In this document: positions 53,876 to 63,099 of the stretch, piece by piece
Layout: every line of letters starts with the position of its first letter
How positions within the stretch are numbered: position 1 is the first letter of the stretch
NCBI RefSeq assembly: GCF_016793485.1
Contig: NZ_JAEULZ010000037.1
Location: 1-64,000, forward strand
Direction: 5' to 3'
DNA length: 64,000 bases
Source of the DNA: Mesorhizobium sp.
GTDB taxonomy: Bacteria > Pseudomonadota > Alphaproteobacteria > Rhizobiales > Rhizobiaceae
Notes under the pieces: model-generated
Databases searched by the model: none
Seen by the model: only the letters and a program-made list of their open reading frames with translations
What the model was told of the DNA's origin: nothing
Program-made: the position numbers and the translations under genes

Positions 53876-55753
53876 TCAATGCGTTTGCGCAATCCATCGC
53901 AAGACGCCGAGCGCTGCTCGAAAGGTGCGTTCGTCTCTGCAATAGATCAGCGGCGGGCGCCCATCGAGCTTGCCATCTACCGATTGTCTGACGATCCGCG
54001 CGGCACTATCGCCAAAGAGTTTCCTGGCCTCGTCGTCCAGCTTTGATCGCCACTCTGTGGCGACGTGTTCGGACCGGCGGACCTGCGCAAACTTTCTCAG
54101 AATCTCTTCAGCCGCGCCAAGGTCAGAGTAGCTTCTCTCAGCTAGGTCGAGCGGAAGGATGCCTCCGTGATCGGCAAGCGGGGTACGGAAGAAATCGGCG
54201 CGATCCATTTCATCCAGGGCCTGTTCCGCGAGCCTGATCAGCAATTGCCGACGACCGTCTGCTTCTTCCGCCGCACGTTTTGCTTTGGCCCTCGCCTCGT
54301 TCTCAGCCCATAAGGATATCGCTTCGCGGATGGCGCGCTCCGCGGGCAGTCCGTGAAAATTGGGTGGCGGTGCGCTGCTTCGCAGGTCCAGGACTTCGAT
54401 GAGCCTTACCAGGTCGCTGTCGATCGAGGAATCAGTTTCGAATGTCTCCTTGCGCGGTCTTCCGCTCTCCGGTTCGATTATCTGCCACCAGGAATCAACC
54501 GTCATCGATGCGCGATCTTCGTCTGGAATCCGTTCCAGGATGCGGGAGACTAAGCTCGAAATATTGTTCACTCTCTCGTTCTTCTTTTGCTCGGTCACCT
54601 CCCAATCGCGCCAGCGATCTGCCAGGCTGGTCTTTAGAGCGAATGAGAGATGCTGTTGTTCGGTCAGACCCGCCGTAGTCATGGCCTGAAGAAATCGATG
54701 AACCGCTTCCCAAGGCGTAAGGAACTCGCGGTCGAGATGGCGCATTGCATCGGCAAGGTCCTTTTTCAATTTCACGAAGTCACCGTGGACATATCCCTCG
54801 TCAAGAAGGCGGGTGACGATATGGTCTGTCGCGAGGAAGCGTTGATGATAGAGTCTCGGCCGCAATATCGTCGCAAGGACAACCGATCGCCAGGTTTCGG
54901 AGCGGCCCGTGAAGCAGCCCGTCCCCCCGATCTGTATTCCTAGATGTTCGCGCAATCCCAGTGCGCGAAGCGCAGTAAGATCCTTGATACGCAGCTTCTG
55001 CTCGCTGGCACTCCGGCGAGTCCGGCCATAAGCCTCGATCTTGCGTCTCGCACTTGATGCCAGCCGTTTGGCAGCGGCATCAGCGTCCTGTCGTTCGCGC
55101 AGCCGTAGGTCCTCGACCGCTCTCTCGATTTTCGCGTTGAACAGCCAGATTCGTGGCGCGGTCGATATGACGGCTCGTCGCACATCTCCGGGTGGCGTGT
55201 TTCGGGGCACAGAGGACATGTCGATCTCGACGGCGGCCGTTCCCAGTCGCTTCAGGCGAGAAATCTTCTCTTCTCCGCAGGCGTGGGTCACCGCGATCTC
55301 GACGAAGATTTCGAGATCTTCACCCTGGAGGCGAAGGTCTGGAATCACTTCGACATGGTCGCGGAACTCCAACGTTGCGCGATCGAAAACGACCTCGCGC
55401 TCCTCGGCAATCAGCTGTTCGTAGCTGCCGTGCGCGGCAAACTCGCGAGGAATCGTAATCCGCAATTCGTCCCGGATGATCTCCTTGCAGAGCAGATGAA
55501 GCGCGGTCTCCGGGCCGCCGCCGCAAGCAGGGCCGTGATGAGCGAAGTGCGCCGCTTTGAGATCATCCTTGAGGTTCGCGACCAGAGCGGCCTTGCAATG
55601 CGGGCAAATCAAACCGCAGGCAAGGCCCCGACGCGCCTCCGAAATGTGGAAAAGCTTCCCGATTTCGGTATCCCAGCCGTAGACGAGCCGCGCGCTGTCG
55701 TTGCCGAATTGGCCGCGGATTTCGGGGTCGTTGTGGCCCTGATGAATCGACAT
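53876..55753 (-). CDS. CoiA-like nuclease
   Basis: A 625-residue protein. The N-terminus matches the CoiA family: zinc-ribbon CPHC (Cys50-Cys53), HFAH (69-72), ETALHLLCKEII (82-93), then the PD-(D/E)XK nuclease core with PDLRL (Asp139) and VEIAVTHACGEEK (Glu152). CoiA was named for competence, but CoiA-like nucleases also occur in defence islands. The remaining ~450 residues are long helices rich in Arg/Glu with no recognised domain. It is transcribed away from the kinase-helicase operon; the 334 bases between them hold both promoters. Confidence 0.75.
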   Translation of the reverse strand: MSIHQGHNDPEIRGQFGNDSARLVYGWDTEIGKLFHISEARRGLACGLICPHCKAALVANLKDDLKAAHFAHHGPACGGGPETALHLLCKEIIRDELRITIPREFAAHGSYEQLIAEEREVVFDRATLEFRDHVEVIPDLRLQGEDLEIFVEIAVTHACGEEKISRLKRLGTAAVEIDMSSVPRNTPPGDVRRAVISTAPRIWLFNAKIERAVEDLRLRERQDADAAAKRLASSARRKIEAYGRTRRSASEQKLRIKDLTALRALGLREHLGIQIGGTGCFTGRSETWRSVVLATILRPRLYHQRFLATDHIVTRLLDEGYVHGDFVKLKKDLADAMRHLDREFLTPWEAVHRFLQAMTTAGLTEQQHLSFALKTSLADRWRDWEVTEQKKNERVNNISSLVSRILERIPDEDRASMTVDSWWQIIEPESGRPRKETFETDSSIDSDLVRLIEVLDLRSSAPPPNFHGLPAERAIREAISLWAENEARAKAKRAAEEADGRRQLLIRLAEQALDEMDRADFFRTPLADHGGILPLDLAERSYSDLGAAEEILRKFAQVRRSEHVATEWRSKLDDEARKLFGDSAARIVRQSVDGKLDGRPPLIYCRDERTFRAALGVLRWIAQTH

Positions 55754-56087: not shown

Positions 56088-59000
56088 TTGGGGGAAAAGC
56101 CGCGGCGCAGAGTGAAAAGTGGGTTTCTTTCAACCTACACCGTTGACGATACCTATCTGCTGAAGCCTGACCGCGCACGCGGTCGGCCTGGTATATTGCG
56201 GGGGCGGAGTCCCTCCGCAAATGATATACTTGTGAAATTCTGGCCTAGGCAGAAAGGGCAGGACGATCAGGATTTGGAGTTGATCTGGCGAAGCGAGGTA
56301 CGCCAGCTTCAACGTCTTGCAGCATTGCCGCGTGCCGACGATCTCTTTGTCCGTATGGTTGGCAGCGGCAAGGACAACGACGGCTTCTACCTCGTTCTCG
56401 ATCCTGGACTGGGAAGTCCCCTGGAATTGTTCCTCGCCGCCAGTCGAAAGCATGAACTCTTGGGACAGGTTCGCCAGCCCCGGGCGCGCCGCATCATGTG
56501 GGGCAACGTGCGGCGGTTGGTCGAGGCGCTCGAACTGCTGCATTCCCAAGGGGCAATCCACCGCAATCTCGACCTCTGGGCTGTCATCACATCACTCGGC
56601 GACGAGCCCGACTTCCGGATAACGGGTTTTGAGTGGTCGATGCGCATAGCGGCGGTTGATGCGACCGAAAGCAAGAAAATCAAAGCGCCTCGTGTCGATG
56701 ACTCTTATTCATTCGCGCGCGACTGGAGAGATCTGGCTCACCTCGCCAGCCTTGTGCTGGACATTCCCAATGCGCCGTTGGCTGATCTGCGGATCGTCCC
56801 GTCCCGCGTGGCGGAACATGTTTCGGCAACAGAGATCAGGCTTCTCCGATCGATGCTTGGTCTCGAACCGGTCGAGCGCCTCGACGGCGAATTCATACTC
56901 AAACGCATCGACGAGATTATTGATAGCATTTCGGCTGAAGCCGCAGGCCGGGACGCTCGACTATGCCTGTCCGTTCGCCTCGGGACGGGTACTCCCCTGT
57001 CGGAGGCGATTCGCCGCGCATCCGGGAACGAAATCGAGATCGCCGATGAAATCCAGCAAATCCGGTTCGTGCTCGACGATTTGGGACGCCACGGACAATT
57101 GGTTGCCATTCGAGACAGCAGTGCCTCGGAAGCGAGATTCGTCCTCGTGGGGAACCGGCTGACCTATAGACTGGCTCCCTACCGTCGGCCGGGGTCCACG
57201 GAAAGCGGCAATTGGGAATTCGCTTACTGCGAACGCGCCGATATCGATCCGCCTCATCCGGCAACGATTGTTGGCGACACCGCAATCGATAGTGATGCCC
57301 TCGACATCATTCGCAACGTCGATGCCACCCAATCTTTTCCTCGTCGCCGCGGCAAAGTCCAACGTTGGGAGGATTACACGCAGCGGACGGTTGCCGCGCT
57401 TGCTCGCAGGTCCGACCTGGAGCGAATGCACCAGTCCTTCGCACTGCTGCTGATCCTCGAGATGGCATATGCTGCCGCCGATATCTTTCCGGTGGAGATC
57501 ATCTCCAAGACCAACACGGGACGCTCCGATCAGCAGGCGATTCGGCTGGTGTCTCGCCACGATGCCGATAGGGCCAAGCTCTCGACGTCGCTCGGATTGG
57601 ATGCGCCCGCAGTCCGCTTGACCAAGATGCTCAACAACGAGGAGATGCGCGAAGACGGGGCATGGACCCTGACTGAACCCGGAATGTTGGGTGAGCGGTC
57701 GACGCCGACAACAAGCTGGCGTTTTGTGGAACTCGAGGACGTCAACGACATCGAGTGCATGAGATTCGAGGGAACATCGCTGCCCCAGCACAGGTCGACG
57801 GCTTATCTGGCGCCTGCTGAAATGATCGGAAGAATCGCGCAGTTCAAACGCCGTTTGAAAGCGCTCGGAGCCCTCCGCGAACACGGAGAACTCCTCCGGA
57901 TGCTCGTGGATCAAAGGTACCGTATCGAAGACAGTCACGATCCGTTGGACGAGACGTCAGCCGCATTTCAAGATCTGGACAGTTCGAAGCAGCAGGCGCT
58001 TCGGGAAATTCTCTCCGTCATTCCGCTCTTCCTCCTTCAGGGTCCGCCAGGCGTGGGAAAGACGTATCTGGTTGGCGATCTCGTAAGACGGCGGTTTGAC
58101 GACGAACCGATCACCAGAATTCTGCTTTCGGCGCAAAGCAATTCAGCGATCGACCATCTCATGAGCGAGGTGCAGACGACGTTTTCCGATGTCAGCTCCG
58201 AAAAGCGTCCTCTGATGGTCCGTGCGAGATCGGCCGATGATGATGAGGCGTCAGGCGAACTCGAAATTGATGTGCAGGCCGGGAAACTCTTGCAAGATTT
58301 GGCAAGCAGCGAGCTGGTCGAGGCAGCCGCACCGCACATGGTAGCACGAATCCGGTCCCTAGCCGAAATGCGTGCGAACGGAGGAGCCCGCCGCATTAGT
58401 TCAACGGGCGGGCGTCGCATGTCGGCTGAGTTGCGCGCTTTCGAAGGGATGATCCTGCGCGCGGCGAACCTTGTATTCGCGACGACGAACTCCGCTGCCG
58501 TCGAACGCCTAATCGAAGAACGCAGCTTGTTCGACTGGACGATCATCGAGGAGGCGGGAAAGGCAACAGGAGGAGAATTGCTGTCTCCCCTCCTTCTGTC
58601 TCATCGTCGTCTCATGATCGGCGACCACAAGCAGCTCCCACCCTTCGATCTCGACACGATCACGAAGCTGCTGTCATCCACCGAGAATGTCAAAAATGCC
58701 GTCTCGTTGGTCGATGATCTACTCTCCCGGTACCTGAAGGATCCTGGGATCGATGAGATCTTTCGTGAGATAGAGGATGAAGATGACGATTTCGGTCGGT
58801 CATGCGCGGACGCATTGGCCATCCTGACGCTGTTCGAGAATTTCGTGGAAAGAGAGTTCGCCCGTCAAAAGAAACGCGATCAGGGTCCTCGCATCGCACG
58901 GCGGCTTAACGAACAATACCGGATGCACCCGGCTATCGCCCAGATCGTTTCCCGTTGCTTCTATGACGGCGAGCTGAGGACAAATCCTAAGCAGGAAAAG

Positions 59001-59666
59001 AAGTTCTTGACCTCCCCAGCACCCGTTATATCCGCGGATGCAAACCGGCTTCCTGACACTCCGGTGGTTTTCATCGATATGCCTTACGTCCGTGAGGAGC
59101 GTCCAGGCGGGCGTGGCGGCGAGAAGCTTCCTCCATGGTCGAACCCGGACGAAGTGCACGCAACCATTCGCGCACTGGAGCTGGTGCGGTCGAGATCAGA
59201 TACCTACAAGCCTTCGCTGGCGGTGTTGTCTCCCTATTGGCAGCAGGTCAATCGAATCGGGAACGAGATCGCGAAGAGACGAGATGGTGCGCTTGGGCAT
59301 CTCAAGAATTTCGTTCCCGCCATCGGCGATCAGCAATTCTGCGGAACGGTCGACTCCTTCCAGGGAGGAGAAGCCGATGCGGTGATCGTTTCCTTGGTTC
59401 GCAACAATCACCACTCGACCCCTGCCAGGGCACTGGGTTTCCTTCGGGACAATCGTCGAATGAACGTGCTGCTGAGCCGAGCGAAATGGCGTCTGATTCT
59501 GATCGGCAGCCTCTCGTTCTACAGGAACATAGTGAAACTCGCCGAGAAGCTGCCCGATCAAGATATCGGTTTCCTAAGTGAATTTCTGAGGGTGCTGGAA
59601 GAAGAAGCCACGTCAAAACAGGCCGAAATCGTGTCTTGGACGACGCTGCGAGGAGGCGCGGCATGA
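56088..59666 (+). CDS. Kinase-like/SF1 helicase fusion, Mokosh MkoA-like
   Basis: A 1192-residue protein. Residues about 15-290 resemble a Ser/Thr kinase: K50 in ILVKFWP, Glu70, GAIHRNLDLWAVI (HRN instead of HRD) and ITGFEWS in place of DFG, so it is probably a pseudokinase. The C-terminal part is an Upf1-like SF1 helicase: GPPGVGKT (652-659), IIEEAGKA (819-826), GDHKQLPP, NEQYRMHP (941-948), VDSFQGGEADAVIVSLVR (from 1088) and RRMNVLLSRAKWRLILIG. This kinase plus COG1112-like helicase layout matches MkoA of type I Mokosh systems as I know them. TTG 56088 has GAGGGAG ten bases upstream; GTG 56112 is an alternative. Confidence 0.82.
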   Translation: MGEKPRRRVKSGFLSTYTVDDTYLLKPDRARGRPGILRGRSPSANDILVKFWPRQKGQDDQDLELIWRSEVRQLQRLAALPRADDLFVRMVGSGKDNDGFYLVLDPGLGSPLELFLAASRKHELLGQVRQPRARRIMWGNVRRLVEALELLHSQGAIHRNLDLWAVITSLGDEPDFRITGFEWSMRIAAVDATESKKIKAPRVDDSYSFARDWRDLAHLASLVLDIPNAPLADLRIVPSRVAEHVSATEIRLLRSMLGLEPVERLDGEFILKRIDEIIDSISAEAAGRDARLCLSVRLGTGTPLSEAIRRASGNEIEIADEIQQIRFVLDDLGRHGQLVAIRDSSASEARFVLVGNRLTYRLAPYRRPGSTESGNWEFAYCERADIDPPHPATIVGDTAIDSDALDIIRNVDATQSFPRRRGKVQRWEDYTQRTVAALARRSDLERMHQSFALLLILEMAYAAADIFPVEIISKTNTGRSDQQAIRLVSRHDADRAKLSTSLGLDAPAVRLTKMLNNEEMREDGAWTLTEPGMLGERSTPTTSWRFVELEDVNDIECMRFEGTSLPQHRSTAYLAPAEMIGRIAQFKRRLKALGALREHGELLRMLVDQRYRIEDSHDPLDETSAAFQDLDSSKQQALREILSVIPLFLLQGPPGVGKTYLVGDLVRRRFDDEPITRILLSAQSNSAIDHLMSEVQTTFSDVSSEKRPLMVRARSADDDEASGELEIDVQAGKLLQDLASSELVEAAAPHMVARIRSLAEMRANGGARRISSTGGRRMSAELRAFEGMILRAANLVFATTNSAAVERLIEERSLFDWTIIEEAGKATGGELLSPLLLSHRRLMIGDHKQLPPFDLDTITKLLSSTENVKNAVSLVDDLLSRYLKDPGIDEIFREIEDEDDDFGRSCADALAILTLFENFVEREFARQKKRDQGPRIARRLNEQYRMHPAIAQIVSRCFYDGELRTNPKQEKKFLTSPAPVISADANRLPDTPVVFIDMPYVREERPGGRGGEKLPPWSNPDEVHATIRALELVRSRSDTYKPSLAVLSPYWQQVNRIGNEIAKRRDGALGHLKNFVPAIGDQQFCGTVDSFQGGEADAVIVSLVRNNHHSTPARALGFLRDNRRMNVLLSRAKWRLILIGSLSFYRNIVKLAEKLPDQDIGFLSEFLRVLEEEATSKQAEIVSWTTLRGGAA

Positions 59667-61435
59667 GAACGGTTCATGTCGTTTTCCCGGTTCTGCGCGG
59701 GACCCGTCGCTTCATCATCGAGAAAGGCCGCAGGTGGAGCGTAATCGAGCATCTACTCCTAGATGCCATCTGCCACGAGCCGGCATCGGCCGTCGACCTG
59801 GCGATAAAGTCGAAGCTCCCGCGACGGGTCGTCGTTGAAGCCTTCATCCGTCTGATGCGAGCGGGCTGGGCAGAAATCGTGACGACGCCCAAAGGACCAA
59901 TGTTCAGGGCGACACATGCAGGGCTTGCGCGTGCCAAATATGATCAGCTTCCCGCCGCCACGATAACCGAGCCGAGATGGCGCGGGTTCGCTATCGAGCA
60001 AGTGACAGGGGGCGTGTTCCGAAGCCGCGAGTTGGACCTGCGCCACCATACTCGGCTGCCCGTTGCAACAGACGATCACCTCGTCGTGCAACTCCCCGGG
60101 TCGTCATTGCACTCGATGGGAGAGTTGGGGGAAGTATTCAGTGCGATCGAAGGCGAGGACGAACTGATCGTTGGCGTTGACAGTGGGGCTGAACGACTGA
60201 TCGAACGCCATGCCGTCGTCACCGTTCGAGATTCCGCGATCGAAGGCTTGCCTTCGCGAGCTTCGCATGCCCTTCGGTTCCTGATCCTGCAGAAGGCAAA
60301 AGAGGCTCTAGATGCGGCCAGGGCCGCAAGGACAGATCCCGGGAAGGCAGCCCTTTCGCCAGTCCTCGTTGACACCCCCGATCCGGCCGAACCGTCGAAC
60401 CAATATGACGGCCTCTATGACGCGGACGATCTGATCGTCGACGCCGATGCGCACGCGCAAGTGCTGGAGCGGGTGATCAAGGGCGCTTCGGAACGGCTGT
60501 TAATTCACTCGACATTCGTCTCGGACGCACGCGCCCAAGCGATTTTGCCAAGCCTTCTGCAGGCCGCCGGTCGTGGCGTGAAGATCGATGTTTTGTGGGG
60601 TCAGGACGATATCGGAACATCCACGAACTCGTCACGGTTTGCCGCTGGAAAGCTCCAAGCCGCCATTGCCGAGGCAGGCCGAACAGACCTTATTTCGATC
60701 CATCCGTTTTCCACCAACTCGCACGCCAAGATCATTGTCGCCGATAACCAGAAGGGCAACTGGTCGGCGTTGGTCGGTTCATGCAACTGGCTTGCTTCCG
60801 ATTTCAAGAGCTTCGAAGCATCGATGCGCCTGCGCGATCCCGCAATGGTAGGCGACTTGGTGCGCAAAGTTGCAGGCCTTTCCCAAGGCCGGCCGGGTGT
60901 CTGGAACGAGTTGGCGATTGAACTCACTGTCTTGGGTCGGCGCATCCGAGAACTCCCCAGACCGAGCGGGCGACGGGTACCTATGCGATTGTTATTCGGT
61001 GCAGAACATGCCGGTCTCGTCCTCGAGGCGCGGGACCGCGCGAGACAGCGCATTTTTGCCCTGAGCCATCGGATCGGCATTGCAGCGCAACCTGTTGCGC
61101 TGCTTCCAACGCTGTCTGCAGTGAAAGCCAACGGTGTCGATGCGACGTTCTACTACGGCCGCACGACGGGACCGCTTTCCGGTGTCGCCGGCGCCGATCT
61201 CGCGCGAGAGTTTGCCAGGGAGGGTTTGGCGATCCTTCCGGTACACAGGCCACGTCTACACGCGAAGGTGTTGGGATGGGACGACGACATAATCGCCGTC
61301 AGCAGCCTGAACTGGCTTTCGGCCGATCCTGCGGAATCAACGCCCTACCGCGAAATCGGTGTTCTTGTGGAGGCGCCGAAGATTGCTGACAATTTCATAC
61401 GCCGGTTTGAACTCGCGAAAGCAAGTCAGGAGTGA
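59663..61435 (+). CDS. Double-HKD PLD nuclease, Mokosh MkoB-like
   Basis: A 590-residue protein starting in the helicase stop codon (ATGA) with GAGGAGG upstream. The N-terminal 100 residues include a winged-helix-like part (SAVDLAIKSKLPRRVVVEAF, then LMRAGWAEIVTTP). Two phospholipase-D HKD motifs follow: NSHAKIIVAD (His354, Lys356) with GSCNWLASD, and RPRLHAKVLGWDDD (His533) with SSLNWLSAD. Both catalytic halves are intact, so it is likely an active nuclease. Paired with the kinase-helicase it matches the second component of type I Mokosh. Confidence 0.82.
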   Translation: MRTVHVVFPVLRGTRRFIIEKGRRWSVIEHLLLDAICHEPASAVDLAIKSKLPRRVVVEAFIRLMRAGWAEIVTTPKGPMFRATHAGLARAKYDQLPAATITEPRWRGFAIEQVTGGVFRSRELDLRHHTRLPVATDDHLVVQLPGSSLHSMGELGEVFSAIEGEDELIVGVDSGAERLIERHAVVTVRDSAIEGLPSRASHALRFLILQKAKEALDAARAARTDPGKAALSPVLVDTPDPAEPSNQYDGLYDADDLIVDADAHAQVLERVIKGASERLLIHSTFVSDARAQAILPSLLQAAGRGVKIDVLWGQDDIGTSTNSSRFAAGKLQAAIAEAGRTDLISIHPFSTNSHAKIIVADNQKGNWSALVGSCNWLASDFKSFEASMRLRDPAMVGDLVRKVAGLSQGRPGVWNELAIELTVLGRRIRELPRPSGRRVPMRLLFGAEHAGLVLEARDRARQRIFALSHRIGIAAQPVALLPTLSAVKANGVDATFYYGRTTGPLSGVAGADLAREFAREGLAILPVHRPRLHAKVLGWDDDIIAVSSLNWLSADPAESTPYREIGVLVEAPKIADNFIRRFELAKASQE

Positions 61436-63099
61436 GCAGCGCAAGAATGGAAACAATCAAGGCGGCAGAGAAAGCCCTCAAAGACGTATTTTGCGATCGC
61501 TATGTTTTTCGCATTCCCCCATATCAACGGCCATACTCGTGGACGCAGGAGCAGGCTGCAGACCTCCTCGACGATTTGATCTGGGCAGCGGGCGACGAAA
61601 AGCCGGCCGAGCAGCCGCCCTACTTCCTTGGCAGCATTGTCGTCATCAAGGATCCAAACTATCCCGAGGCGGATGTCGTCGACGGGCAGCAACGGCTCAC
61701 CACGCTGACGATCCTCATGAGCGTATTGCGCGAGTTCGCAACCACCGCCGATGGCAAGGCCAACATCGACATATTCCTTCGCCAAAAGGGCAACTCGCTG
61801 CTCGGGACCAAGGACGTCCCGCGCCTGACTGTCCGGCAGCGGGATGCTGAATTCTTCCGCAAATGCATCCAGGACGGCGATGAAGGCGGGATTCTTGAGG
61901 CTGCCGATACAGATGCGCGGCAGCGTATGATCACAACTAGGGACTATTTCCGCCGCACGCTTGGAGAGATGTCCGCGGTCGACAGGGATCGACTTCTCCC
62001 TTTTGCGGTACAACGTTGCTATCTCGTCGTTGTTGAGGCTTCAGACCAGTCGTCCGCCTACCGAATTTTTTCTGTTATGAACGATCGTGGCTTGGACCTG
62101 ACTGCCACTGACATTCTTAAGTCGGATATTATTGGCGCCATCGACACTGAGGATCAGCAAGAGGCCTACAACGCCAAATGGGAGGCACTCGAGGACGGTC
62201 TAGGACGCGAAGCATTCGGCGACCTCTTCGCACATCTGCGAATGATCCATCGCAAGCAGAAAATGCGGGGTTCTCTTGAACGGGAGTTCCGGGACTACGT
62301 GAACCCTGTCGAAAAGCCGCGAGAGTTCATCGACAGCGAGTTGCGCCCCAGTGCGGAAGCATTCGAGCGCATTCTGGAACCGGACCCCTCACAAACGAAG
62401 CGGTATCGCCTGCTCAAAGGCTTGCATCAACTGGACAACCAGGACTGGCAGCCACCGGCGATCAAGTTCATGGTCGAACATCACGCCAACGACGAGGAGA
62501 TTGTCCAATTCCTAAAGCGGCTCGATCGGCTCGCCTACTTTCTGTTCGCCAGTCGCGCAAACGTCAACGACCGCCTGACGCGCTACGCTGCCGTGTTGAC
62601 GGATATGGAAGAGGGAACCGCGCTTCAAGACGGCAAAGCCCTGGATCTCACGGACGCCGAGAAAATGGACTTCAAACTCACCCTCGGTGGAAACATCTAT
62701 CTCAACCAGCGAACAAGGCGCCCTATCCTGCTGCGGCTGGATGAGATGCTGTCGGATGGCACGGCCCACTATGACCATGCCCTGGTGACGATCGAACATG
62801 TTCTCCCGCAGAACCCAGCGGCGGACAGCGAGTGGCTGGCGCACTTTCCGACCCAGGAAATCCGCAACGAATGGGTCCACCGCCTCGCCAATCTGGTGCT
62901 GCTGTCGCGCTACAAGAATCCCGCAGCAAGCAACTATGATTTCACGTACAAGAAGGACACCTATTTCGCGCAAAGCGGCGATAGCGCCTACGTGCTGACA
63001 AGCCAAGTGCGCCAAGAGCTCGAATGGACTCCGGCGGTCCTAAAAGCACGGCAGGAGAAGCTTCTGGCCAGGATCAGCCATGTCTGGGAGCTCGGTTGA
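61432..63099 (+). CDS. DUF262-DUF1524 (GmrSD-like) protein
   Basis: A 555-residue protein starting GTG inside the PLD gene's stop (GTGA). The DUF262 part (GmrS-like) has RIPPYQRPYSWTQEQAADLL (about residues 27-46) and VVDGQQRLTTLTIL (from 82, the DGQQR motif). The C-terminal DUF1524 part (GmrD-like) has an HNH-type core IEHVLPQNP (454-462) and WVHRLANLVLLSRYKNPAAS. The two-part architecture is that of GmrSD type IV restriction enzymes, which cut modified (glucosylated) phage DNA. Coupling to a Mokosh-like pair is unusual. Confidence 0.82.
   Translation: MSSARMETIKAAEKALKDVFCDRYVFRIPPYQRPYSWTQEQAADLLDDLIWAAGDEKPAEQPPYFLGSIVVIKDPNYPEADVVDGQQRLTTLTILMSVLREFATTADGKANIDIFLRQKGNSLLGTKDVPRLTVRQRDAEFFRKCIQDGDEGGILEAADTDARQRMITTRDYFRRTLGEMSAVDRDRLLPFAVQRCYLVVVEASDQSSAYRIFSVMNDRGLDLTATDILKSDIIGAIDTEDQQEAYNAKWEALEDGLGREAFGDLFAHLRMIHRKQKMRGSLEREFRDYVNPVEKPREFIDSELRPSAEAFERILEPDPSQTKRYRLLKGLHQLDNQDWQPPAIKFMVEHHANDEEIVQFLKRLDRLAYFLFASRANVNDRLTRYAAVLTDMEEGTALQDGKALDLTDAEKMDFKLTLGGNIYLNQRTRRPILLRLDEMLSDGTAHYDHALVTIEHVLPQNPAADSEWLAHFPTQEIRNEWVHRLANLVLLSRYKNPAASNYDFTYKKDTYFAQSGDSAYVLTSQVRQELEWTPAVLKARQEKLLARISHVWELG

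What the first reader, a model, noticed from the sequence alone, without database searches (positions are those of the whole stretch)
56088..61435. Mokosh type I-like anti-phage pair with pseudokinase
A 1192-residue fusion of a kinase-like domain with an Upf1-like SF1 helicase is translationally coupled (ATGA) to a two-HKD phospholipase-D nuclease. This is the design of type I Mokosh (MkoA: kinase plus helicase; MkoB: PLD). Here the kinase has HRN instead of HRD and TGF instead of DFG, so the domain may sense a signal without phosphorylating. PLD motifs and helicase motifs are complete.
Basis: partly seen in the sequence, partly recalled or inferred. Interest (0 to 1): 0.85.

Follow-up and report, generated by a model that had tools for sequence, protein, structure and literature searches.

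The report
Mokosh defence pair with dead kinase
A bacterial anti-virus gene pair of a known kind (Mokosh) whose built-in kinase has lost its catalytic residues in every examined close relative, so it probably acts as a switch or docking part rather than as an enzyme.

Summary
Window 56088-59666 encodes a 1192-residue kinase-fold plus Upf1-like SF1 helicase. It overlaps by ATGA a 590-residue, two-HKD phospholipase-D nuclease (59663-61435). Both match PADLOC's Mokosh type I profiles over nearly their full length (MkoA 909 bits, MkoB 336 bits). The dead kinase is not a quirk of this copy. In 26 of 26 aligned sequences (window plus 25 relatives) the HRD aspartate is gone, and DFG has become G-x-E with that Gly and Glu invariant. 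On a helicase tree these MkoAs form one group, apart from two others: 12 rows (cyanobacteria, actinobacteria, alphaproteobacteria) with intact HRD/DFG kinases, and 10 NERD-type, tandem-kinase rows, joined by E. coli. Partner state differs in parallel: two HKDs with the dead kinase; one HKD, or none plus a PP2C phosphatase gene, with the live kinase; none in the NERD group. Helicase motif II is EEA, not DEA, throughout the group. Verdict: Mokosh type I by profile, a subgroup distinct from the NERD-bearing form, with a constrained pseudokinase. Function untested.

The parts
56088..59666 (+). MkoA: 1192 aa, pseudokinase plus Upf1-like SF1 helicase (TTG start)
   Evidence: PADLOC PDLC03920 909 bits, residues 19-1176; Pfam AAA_11, AAA_12
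56133..56918 (+). kinase-fold domain, residues 16-277; beta3 Lys K50 (56235-56237) and E70 (56295-56297, probable alphaC Glu) present
   Evidence: hhalign to live MkoA kinases, 99.0%, E 3.5e-18; PDB kinases by profile; alignment
56559..56567 (+). HRN in place of HRD (residues 158-160): catalytic Asp lost
   Evidence: alignment; Asn 10, Ser 4, Ala 6, Gly 3, Arg 3 of 26 rows, window included
56625..56633 (+). GFE in place of DFG (residues 180-182): Mg-binding Asp lost; G180 and E182 invariant
   Evidence: 26 of 26 aligned rows, window included
57930..59537 (+). SF1 helicase core, about residues 615-1150
   Evidence: Pfam; NAM7/UPF1, SEN1, SMUBP-2 structures
58041..58064 (+). helicase motif I, GPPGVGKT
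58548..58556 (+). helicase motif II, EEA instead of DEA
   Evidence: 28 of 28 subgroup rows EEA; 22 of 22 rows of the other two groups DEA
59663..59666 (+). ATGA overlap of MkoA stop and MkoB start
   Evidence: sequence; a 4-base overlap in 22 of 28 loci (21 of 27, plus the window)
59663..61435 (+). MkoB: 590 aa, weak (sub-threshold) N-terminal winged-helix match, two PLD domains
   Evidence: PADLOC PDLC03922 336 bits, residues 1-582; PLDc_2 in two stretches, TrmB E 0.019
60722..60745 (+). HKD motif 1 of MkoB (HAKIIVAD, from residue 354)
61259..61282 (+). HKD motif 2 of MkoB (HAKVLGWD, from residue 533)
61432..63099 (+). third gene, GmrSD family (DUF262 + DUF1524), 555 aa, GTG overlapping the MkoB stop; read as a local addition
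   Evidence: Pfam GmrSD_N 1.9e-36 and GmrSD_C 1.3e-25; no relative in 52 of 52 other loci searched

Best explanation
This is a Mokosh type I (MkoA-MkoB) anti-phage operon of a subgroup whose kinase-fold domain is a pseudokinase. Proposed working: MkoA's Upf1-like helicase engages phage-derived nucleic acid (RNA, or RNA/DNA intermediates) and moves along it with ATP. The pseudokinase does not phosphorylate. It is a nucleotide-binding or docking module that relays the helicase state to MkoB, or receives a ligand. MkoB is the effector: its two HKD motifs form one PLD active site in a single chain and cut the nucleic acid presented by MkoA. Shown here: domain make-up, motif states, family-wide loss with invariant replacement residues, conserved pairing and overlap, and a defence-island setting. 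Inferred: anti-phage activity, substrate, absence of catalysis, and the relay role. The GmrSD gene behind the pair probably adds an independent DNA-targeting layer and is not part of the core system.
For: Nearly full-length MkoA and MkoB profile hits. Kinase fold by homology without catalytic or Mg-binding Asp. Gly180 and Glu182 invariant in 26 of 26 rows (window included) while the sequences diverge to 21% identity with the window: constraint, not decay. The beta3 Lys and the Glu at position 70 go together: both kept in 20 of 26 rows, both replaced (Arg and Gly) in the same 6, which are one branch of the tree (read by eye). These MkoAs form one group on helicase trees. 27 of 27 other subgroup loci have a MkoB-type frame directly behind MkoA, as has the window. 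Both HKD His and Lys are kept in 26 of 28; the other two have shortened MkoB frames. Neighbouring defence genes: Hachiman HamA and HamB, an AbiJ N-terminal domain gene, PDC-S01, and an integrase, at contig 64985-75350. 48 plasmid records match MkoA, 37 typed conjugative, though 25 are Agrobacterium and many of those near-identical. One paper states that Mokosh degrades foreign viral transcripts (PMC11291487, passage seen).
Against: No functional test of a member of this subgroup was seen in the listings or passages of the library searches, and the founding paper (recalled: Millman et al. 2022) is not held. Kinase-fold proteins without HRD/DFG can have other chemistry, so 'dead' is a sequence inference. 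The model of residues 1-330 failed (pLDDT 36.7). Motif II EEA in place of DEA could weaken ATPase activity. The Asp of one HKD motif is changed in 5 of the 26 complete MkoB relatives, so a full two-site nuclease is not universal. No phage record encodes a MkoB relative by tblastn, which says nothing about targets.
Confidence: 0.72

Rival explanations
1. The kinase-fold domain is not inactive but has changed chemistry (AMPylation, glutamylation, or Mg-independent phosphorylation), with the invariant GxE as part of the new active site.
For: G180 and E182, W138, H152, D212 and E249 are invariant in 26 of 26 rows, more than a mere scaffold needs. The beta3 Lys is Lys in 20 and Arg in 6. The profile's best PDB matches include CASK, which I recall as a pseudokinase with GFG and Mg-independent activity; recalled, not from a call.
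Against: The HRD Asp position varies freely (N, S, A, G, R) and the catalytic-loop Lys and Asn are gone as well, so no canonical base is left. No new chemistry was tested.
Confidence: 0.15
2. The operon is a housekeeping RNA-quality or DNA-repair unit, not a defence system; its helicase is close to UPF1, SEN1 and DNA2.
For: Best solved relatives of the helicase are NAM7/UPF1, SEN1, SMUBP-2 and DNA2.
Against: Patchy occurrence: matches over 590 bits to the MkoA profile in 12 of 396 relatives, own genome included and two of them live-kinase forms, and at E<=1e-100 in 11 of 398 genomes of the phylum and 3 of 385 of the class, own genome included in each. Plasmid carriage, varying neighbours, and Hachiman close by fit defence.
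Confidence: 0.06
3. The unit is a three-gene system in which the GmrSD-family protein (61432-63099) is an obligate third component.
For: GTG of the third gene overlaps the MkoB stop, so it is probably co-translated.
Against: tblastn (E<=1e-4) finds no GmrSD relative in 52 of 52 other loci (a few are cut short by contig ends). The three nearest relatives in 300 genomes (41-49% identity) have no MkoA or MkoB in their 1.5 kb flanks.
Confidence: 0.1

Closest known systems
Mokosh type I, PADLOC profiles PDLC03920 (MkoA) and PDLC03922 (MkoB)
   Same: Nearly full-length matches to both, gene order, overlap, Upf1-like helicase, PLD nuclease.
   Different: The MkoA profile also matches live-kinase relatives over their length (L111 919.8 bits, L041 670.7 bits) and does not separate live from dead kinase; the window belongs to the dead-kinase group.
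Mokosh type I of E. coli (L120, L121; L120 matches PDLC03921 and PDLC03923)
   Same: Kinase-like regions plus SF1 helicase, overlapped by a MkoB gene.
   Different: About 1650 aa with a NERD-type ELKDW motif and two kinase-like motif regions; motif II DEA; MkoB of 478 aa without any HxK motif (both copies) and without a Pfam PLD match (L120).
Live-kinase MkoA group (cyanobacteria L110-113 and L116; actinobacteria L118-119; alphaproteobacteria L038, L041, L114, L115, L117)
   Same: Single kinase domain plus helicase, MkoB directly behind in 11 of 12 (L041's contig ends first), same PADLOC profiles where scanned.
   Different: HRD and DFG or DYG intact in 12 of 12; motif II DEAS; MkoB 458-538 aa with one HKD (7 of 7 cyano- and actinobacterial) or none plus a PP2C gene (4 of 4 testable alphaproteobacterial).
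Hachiman (HamA-HamB), also present in this contig, HamB ending about 5 kb beyond MkoB
   Same: Works like it in outline: sensor helicase plus nuclease (abstract start of PMC12278908 seen in the listing).
   Different: Different helicase (DEAD-box in PADLOC's description) and nuclease; no kinase-fold domain.
Mokosh type II (MkoC)
   Same: Helicase and PLD of the same kinds; both window proteins give partial hits to PDLC03924.
   Different: One profile of 1136 positions that spans helicase and PLD parts; the window has two genes and a kinase-fold domain.

Membership tests
Mokosh type I (PADLOC profiles) | MkoA profile matched over its length | tested here: met
   PDLC03920, 909 bits, positions 7-1103 of 1112
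Mokosh type I (PADLOC profiles) | MkoB profile matched over its length, gene adjacent on the same strand | tested here: met
   PDLC03922, 336 bits, positions 3-603 of 610; ATGA overlap
Mokosh type I (PADLOC profiles) | SF1 helicase of Upf1 type with its motifs | tested here: met
   Pfam AAA_11 and AAA_12, Upf1 structures; motifs I, II, III, V, VI present, motif II as EEA
Mokosh type I (PADLOC profiles) | PLD domain with HKD motifs in MkoB | tested here: met
   two complete HKD motifs, PLDc_2
Mokosh type I (PADLOC profiles) | kinase-fold domain in MkoA | tested here: met
   profile-profile E 3.5e-18, PDB kinases; structure model uninformative
Mokosh type I (PADLOC profiles) | anti-phage activity | not testable with these tools
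Mokosh type I, NERD-bearing E. coli-like subgroup | N-terminal NERD nuclease domain and two kinase-like regions in MkoA | tested here: not met
   no NERD match in the window MkoA, one kinase domain; NERD by Pfam in L043, ELKDW motif in two E. coli copies. PMC10952713 lists NERD for Mokosh type I (passage)
Pseudokinase | kinase fold | tested here: met
   homology only; fold model failed
Pseudokinase | loss of HRD Asp and DFG Asp | tested here: met
   window HRN and GFE; 26 of 26 aligned rows, window included, lack both
Pseudokinase | no phosphotransfer activity | not testable with these tools
   needs biochemistry
Mokosh type II (MkoC) | helicase and PLD fused in one protein | tested here: not met
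   two separate overlapping genes
GmrSD type IV restriction (third gene) | GmrSD_N and GmrSD_C domains | tested here: met
   126.5 and 90.3 bits, cut-offs 33.2 and 23

The most novel reading that the evidence does not exclude
'Mokosh type I' is a shared helicase core on which catalytic duties have been swapped. With a dead kinase the PLD partner has a two-HKD site; with a live kinase the PLD has half a site, or is dead and joined by a PP2C phosphatase that could reverse the kinase; with a NERD nuclease in MkoA the partner has no HKD. In the window's group the former kinase has become a conserved non-phosphorylating gate (G-x-E signature) that controls the nuclease directly, replacing phosphorylation-based control.
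Probability: 0.35. Interest if true: 0.72.

Novelty: new variant of a known kind. Interest (0 to 1): 0.52.

Why it matters
Of the held papers whose Mokosh passages I read, one lists the mechanism as unknown (PMC12926258), one says it degrades viral transcripts (PMC11291487), and one lists domains for types I and II (PMC10952713); none of these passages splits type I by kinase or nuclease state. The pattern here gives at least four catalytic make-ups around one helicase core, and it tells experimenters which residues to test in which subgroup: PLD in one, kinase in another, NERD in a third. It also offers a natural comparison (live versus dead kinase, with and without PP2C) for asking what the kinase-fold domain does. 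The state of the kinase changes once on the tree, so the parallel changes in partner genes are a single contrast, not statistical proof.

Tried and rejected
Structure of MkoA residues 1-330: one job, window sequence alone, mean pLDDT 36.7; no fold search was run on it. Alignments with relatives were not handed to the predictor, because its stated rule names only loci from other tools. The genome-contig scan gave 19 loci; those I looked at further are mostly distant helicases, and one (L057) groups with the NERD-type MkoAs, so my label 'other_SF1' for it was wrong. Viral-contig scans, which used exact peptide patterns only, found no relative, nor did phage records for MkoB.

Rows dropped. L101, L102 and L109 were left out of the tree. 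On re-check, L101 (2268 aa, long N-terminal extension that reads like an NTPase) is a pseudokinase MkoA too (HRF, GFFE, motif II EEAA), and the fragment L050 has HRN and GFE; both agree with the pattern but are not in the 26. L102 and L109 show no kinase domain by either profile. L042 and L085 lack the kinase in their open frame and are in the 28 but not the 26. L049 is split over two frames, L051 is another helicase, L086 has only an interrupted MkoB; none is counted. L048 is the window's own contig. L041's contig ends at MkoA, so its partner genes are unknown.

Considered and rejected: that the dead kinase is a local pseudogene (refuted by conservation); that GmrSD is a core part; that the helicase is an unrelated repair helicase. 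Deep branching among the MkoA groups and other helicases is not resolved: some other helicases fall among the MkoA groups and the live-kinase group has support of only 50, so MkoA as a single clade, and which state is ancestral, are open. Both trees used the quick method, and both warned of long branches meeting.
Full report
What is there. The frame 56088-59666 (+) is open for 1192 codons from a TTG. The next gene starts at ATG 59663 inside its stop codon (ATGA) and runs to 61435 (590 aa). A third gene, not in the finding, starts at GTG 61432, overlapping the stop of the second, and runs to 63099 (555 aa). Pfam gives AAA_11 and AAA_12 helicase domains and only a sub-threshold kinase hit (E 0.079) for the first, PLDc_2 in two stretches for the second, and GmrSD_N plus GmrSD_C for the third. 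PADLOC gives MkoA 909 bits and MkoB 336 bits over nearly the whole length of both profiles, and Orf5 and HEC-06 profiles for the third.

The kinase-fold domain. Aligned with relatives, the window reads HRN for HRD and GFE for DFG. In 26 of 26 aligned sequences (window plus 25) the HRD Asp is absent: Asn in 10, Ser in 4, Ala in 6, Gly in 3, Arg in 3. The Gly and Glu that replace Asp and Gly of DFG are invariant, as are W138, H152, D212, E249 and A83. The beta3 Lys is Lys in 20 and Arg in 6; the Glu at position 70 is kept in the same 20 and Gly in the same 6, which are one branch (read by eye). Two further members left out of that alignment, L050 (fragment) and L101 (with a long N-terminal extension), also lack both aspartates. 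The domain is a kinase by homology: profile against the live kinases of other MkoA proteins, 99.0% probability, E 3.5e-18 (repeated at 4.7e-18), and the 60 listed of 1334 PDB matches are protein kinases, led by GCN2, with PKR and CASK among them. It is less close to the two kinase regions of the NERD group (E 2.1e-6 and 1.8e-13). A single-sequence fold prediction was uninformative.

A subgroup trait, and what goes with it. A helicase tree of 50 rows separates three groups: 28 rows around the window (26 with a pseudokinase and 2 whose frame lacks the kinase), 12 with HRD and DFG/DYG, and 10 with a NERD-type N-terminus and two kinase-like regions. The live-kinase and NERD groups are each one side of a branch (99), and the branch that sets the 28 apart has 100 (quick method, SH-aLRT only, with a long-branch warning). 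With 15 further helicases added, the pseudokinase rows stay together (13 rows, 100), while the deeper order is unresolved and the live-kinase group has support of only 50; the E. coli MkoA falls in the NERD group. Motif II is EEA in 28 of 28 rows of the window's group, DEA in 12 of 12 and 10 of 10 of the others.

Partner genes. In 27 of 27 other loci of the window's group a MkoB-type frame follows at once, as in the window; the 4-base overlap is seen in 22 of these 28. Both HKD His and Lys are present in 26 of 28, and the other two (L080, L085) have shortened MkoB frames. Of the 26, the Asp of a motif is changed in L040, L082, L083 and L099 (HKD2, Gly) and L081 (HKD1, Asn). In the live-kinase group MkoB has one HKD in 7 of 7 cyano- and actinobacterial loci. 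It has none in 4 of 4 alphaproteobacterial loci whose contig reaches it (L038, L114, L115, L117), and these four have a PP2C phosphatase gene overlapping MkoB (Pfam). In the fifth, L041, the contig ends. In the NERD group 10 of 10 MkoB frames have no HKD by pattern, and neither have the two E. coli copies. The NERD-type [DE]xKDW motif was found by pattern in 7 of those 10 MkoA rows and not in L103, L104 and L105. PP2C was found by tblastn in none of the 27 other loci of the window's group, the 10 NERD loci or the 7 cyano- and actinobacterial loci, nor in the window's own contig beyond 60000. Because kinase state changes once on the tree, the association with partner state is one contrast and carries no statistical weight.

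Setting. The contig beyond the window holds a TPR gene, an AbiJ N-terminal-domain gene, Hachiman HamB (1648 bits) and HamA (372 bits), a PDC-S01 candidate, an ScpB gene and an integrase. Matches over 590 bits to the MkoA profile occur in 12 of 396 relatives, own genome included; at E<=1e-100 there are matches in 11 of 398 genomes of the phylum (10 besides the window's own) and 3 of 385 of the class (2 besides its own). In the plasmid collection 48 records match MkoA; 37 are typed conjugative and 25 are Agrobacterium, many near-identical. The nearest named relative is on a plasmid of Nitratireductor rhodophyticola (64.7% identity). The same genome carries a second, NERD-type Mokosh pair (L043: MkoA 1570 aa, 1215 bits; MkoB 463 aa, 212 bits).

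The third gene. No GmrSD relative was found in 52 of 52 other loci, nor in the other loci. The three closest homologues in 300 genomes are not next to MkoA or MkoB within 1.5 kb. It is best read as a separate defence gene captured into the operon.

Mechanism. Shown: architecture, motif states, conservation, pairing, setting. Inferred: MkoA senses and moves along phage nucleic acid; the pseudokinase gates or docks; MkoB cuts. PMC11291487 states that Mokosh degrades viral transcripts (passage), which fits an RNA target but was not tested on this subgroup as far as seen. In outline this works like Hachiman, where a helicase restrains a nuclease until it senses its target (abstract start seen in the listing), but it is not a Hachiman.

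Literature. Searches for Mokosh with MkoA, pseudokinase, kinase domain, phospholipase, LY180 and 'expanded arsenal', for Mokosh alone, and for pseudokinase with anti-phage and helicase listed no paper whose title or abstract start describes the kinase state of MkoA; two lists were capped (10 of 75, 12 of 40). Passages were read in PMC11291487, PMC12278908, PMC10952713, PMC12839542 and PMC12926258. PMC10952713 lists NERD and a PLD-like domain for Mokosh type I. The library lacks most subscription papers and the founding paper, so absence there is weak evidence of novelty.

Noticed in passing
G000 contig C7 (locus L043: 6082-10794 and 10794-12185, + strand): The same genome has a second Mokosh pair of the NERD plus tandem-kinase type, so two different Mokosh designs coexist in one cell.
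   Followed up: yes
contig C50 64985-75350, just beyond the window (locus L048: 4986-15351): Defence island: AbiJ N-terminal-domain gene, Hachiman HamB and HamA, PDC-S01 candidate, ScpB gene, integrase.
   Followed up: partly
L038 3729-4484 (-), L114 9870-10595, L115 9945-10754, L117 9807-10625: PP2C phosphatase gene overlapping an HKD-less MkoB in four alphaproteobacterial live-kinase Mokosh loci: an apparent kinase-phosphatase version of the system.
   Followed up: partly
L101 (G451), roughly 5-12 kb, minus strand: A 2268-residue MkoA-like protein with a long N-terminal extension that reads like a STAND/AAA NTPase (not scanned) in front of a pseudokinase and the helicase; a 798-aa frame follows 111 bases on.
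   Followed up: partly
window 53876-55753 (-): 625-aa protein divergently placed upstream of MkoA, no PADLOC match and no Pfam match over its cut-off; its cysteine/histidine-rich N-terminus recalls CoiA-like proteins (recalled, not tested).
   Followed up: no
L084 9655-10797, and behind MkoB in L042: A 381-aa frame overlaps the MkoB stop in two related loci (no Pfam match for L084); other loci have other neighbours, such as an HNH endonuclease (L076) or SIR2 and SAVED/ThiF-type genes (L077).
   Followed up: no
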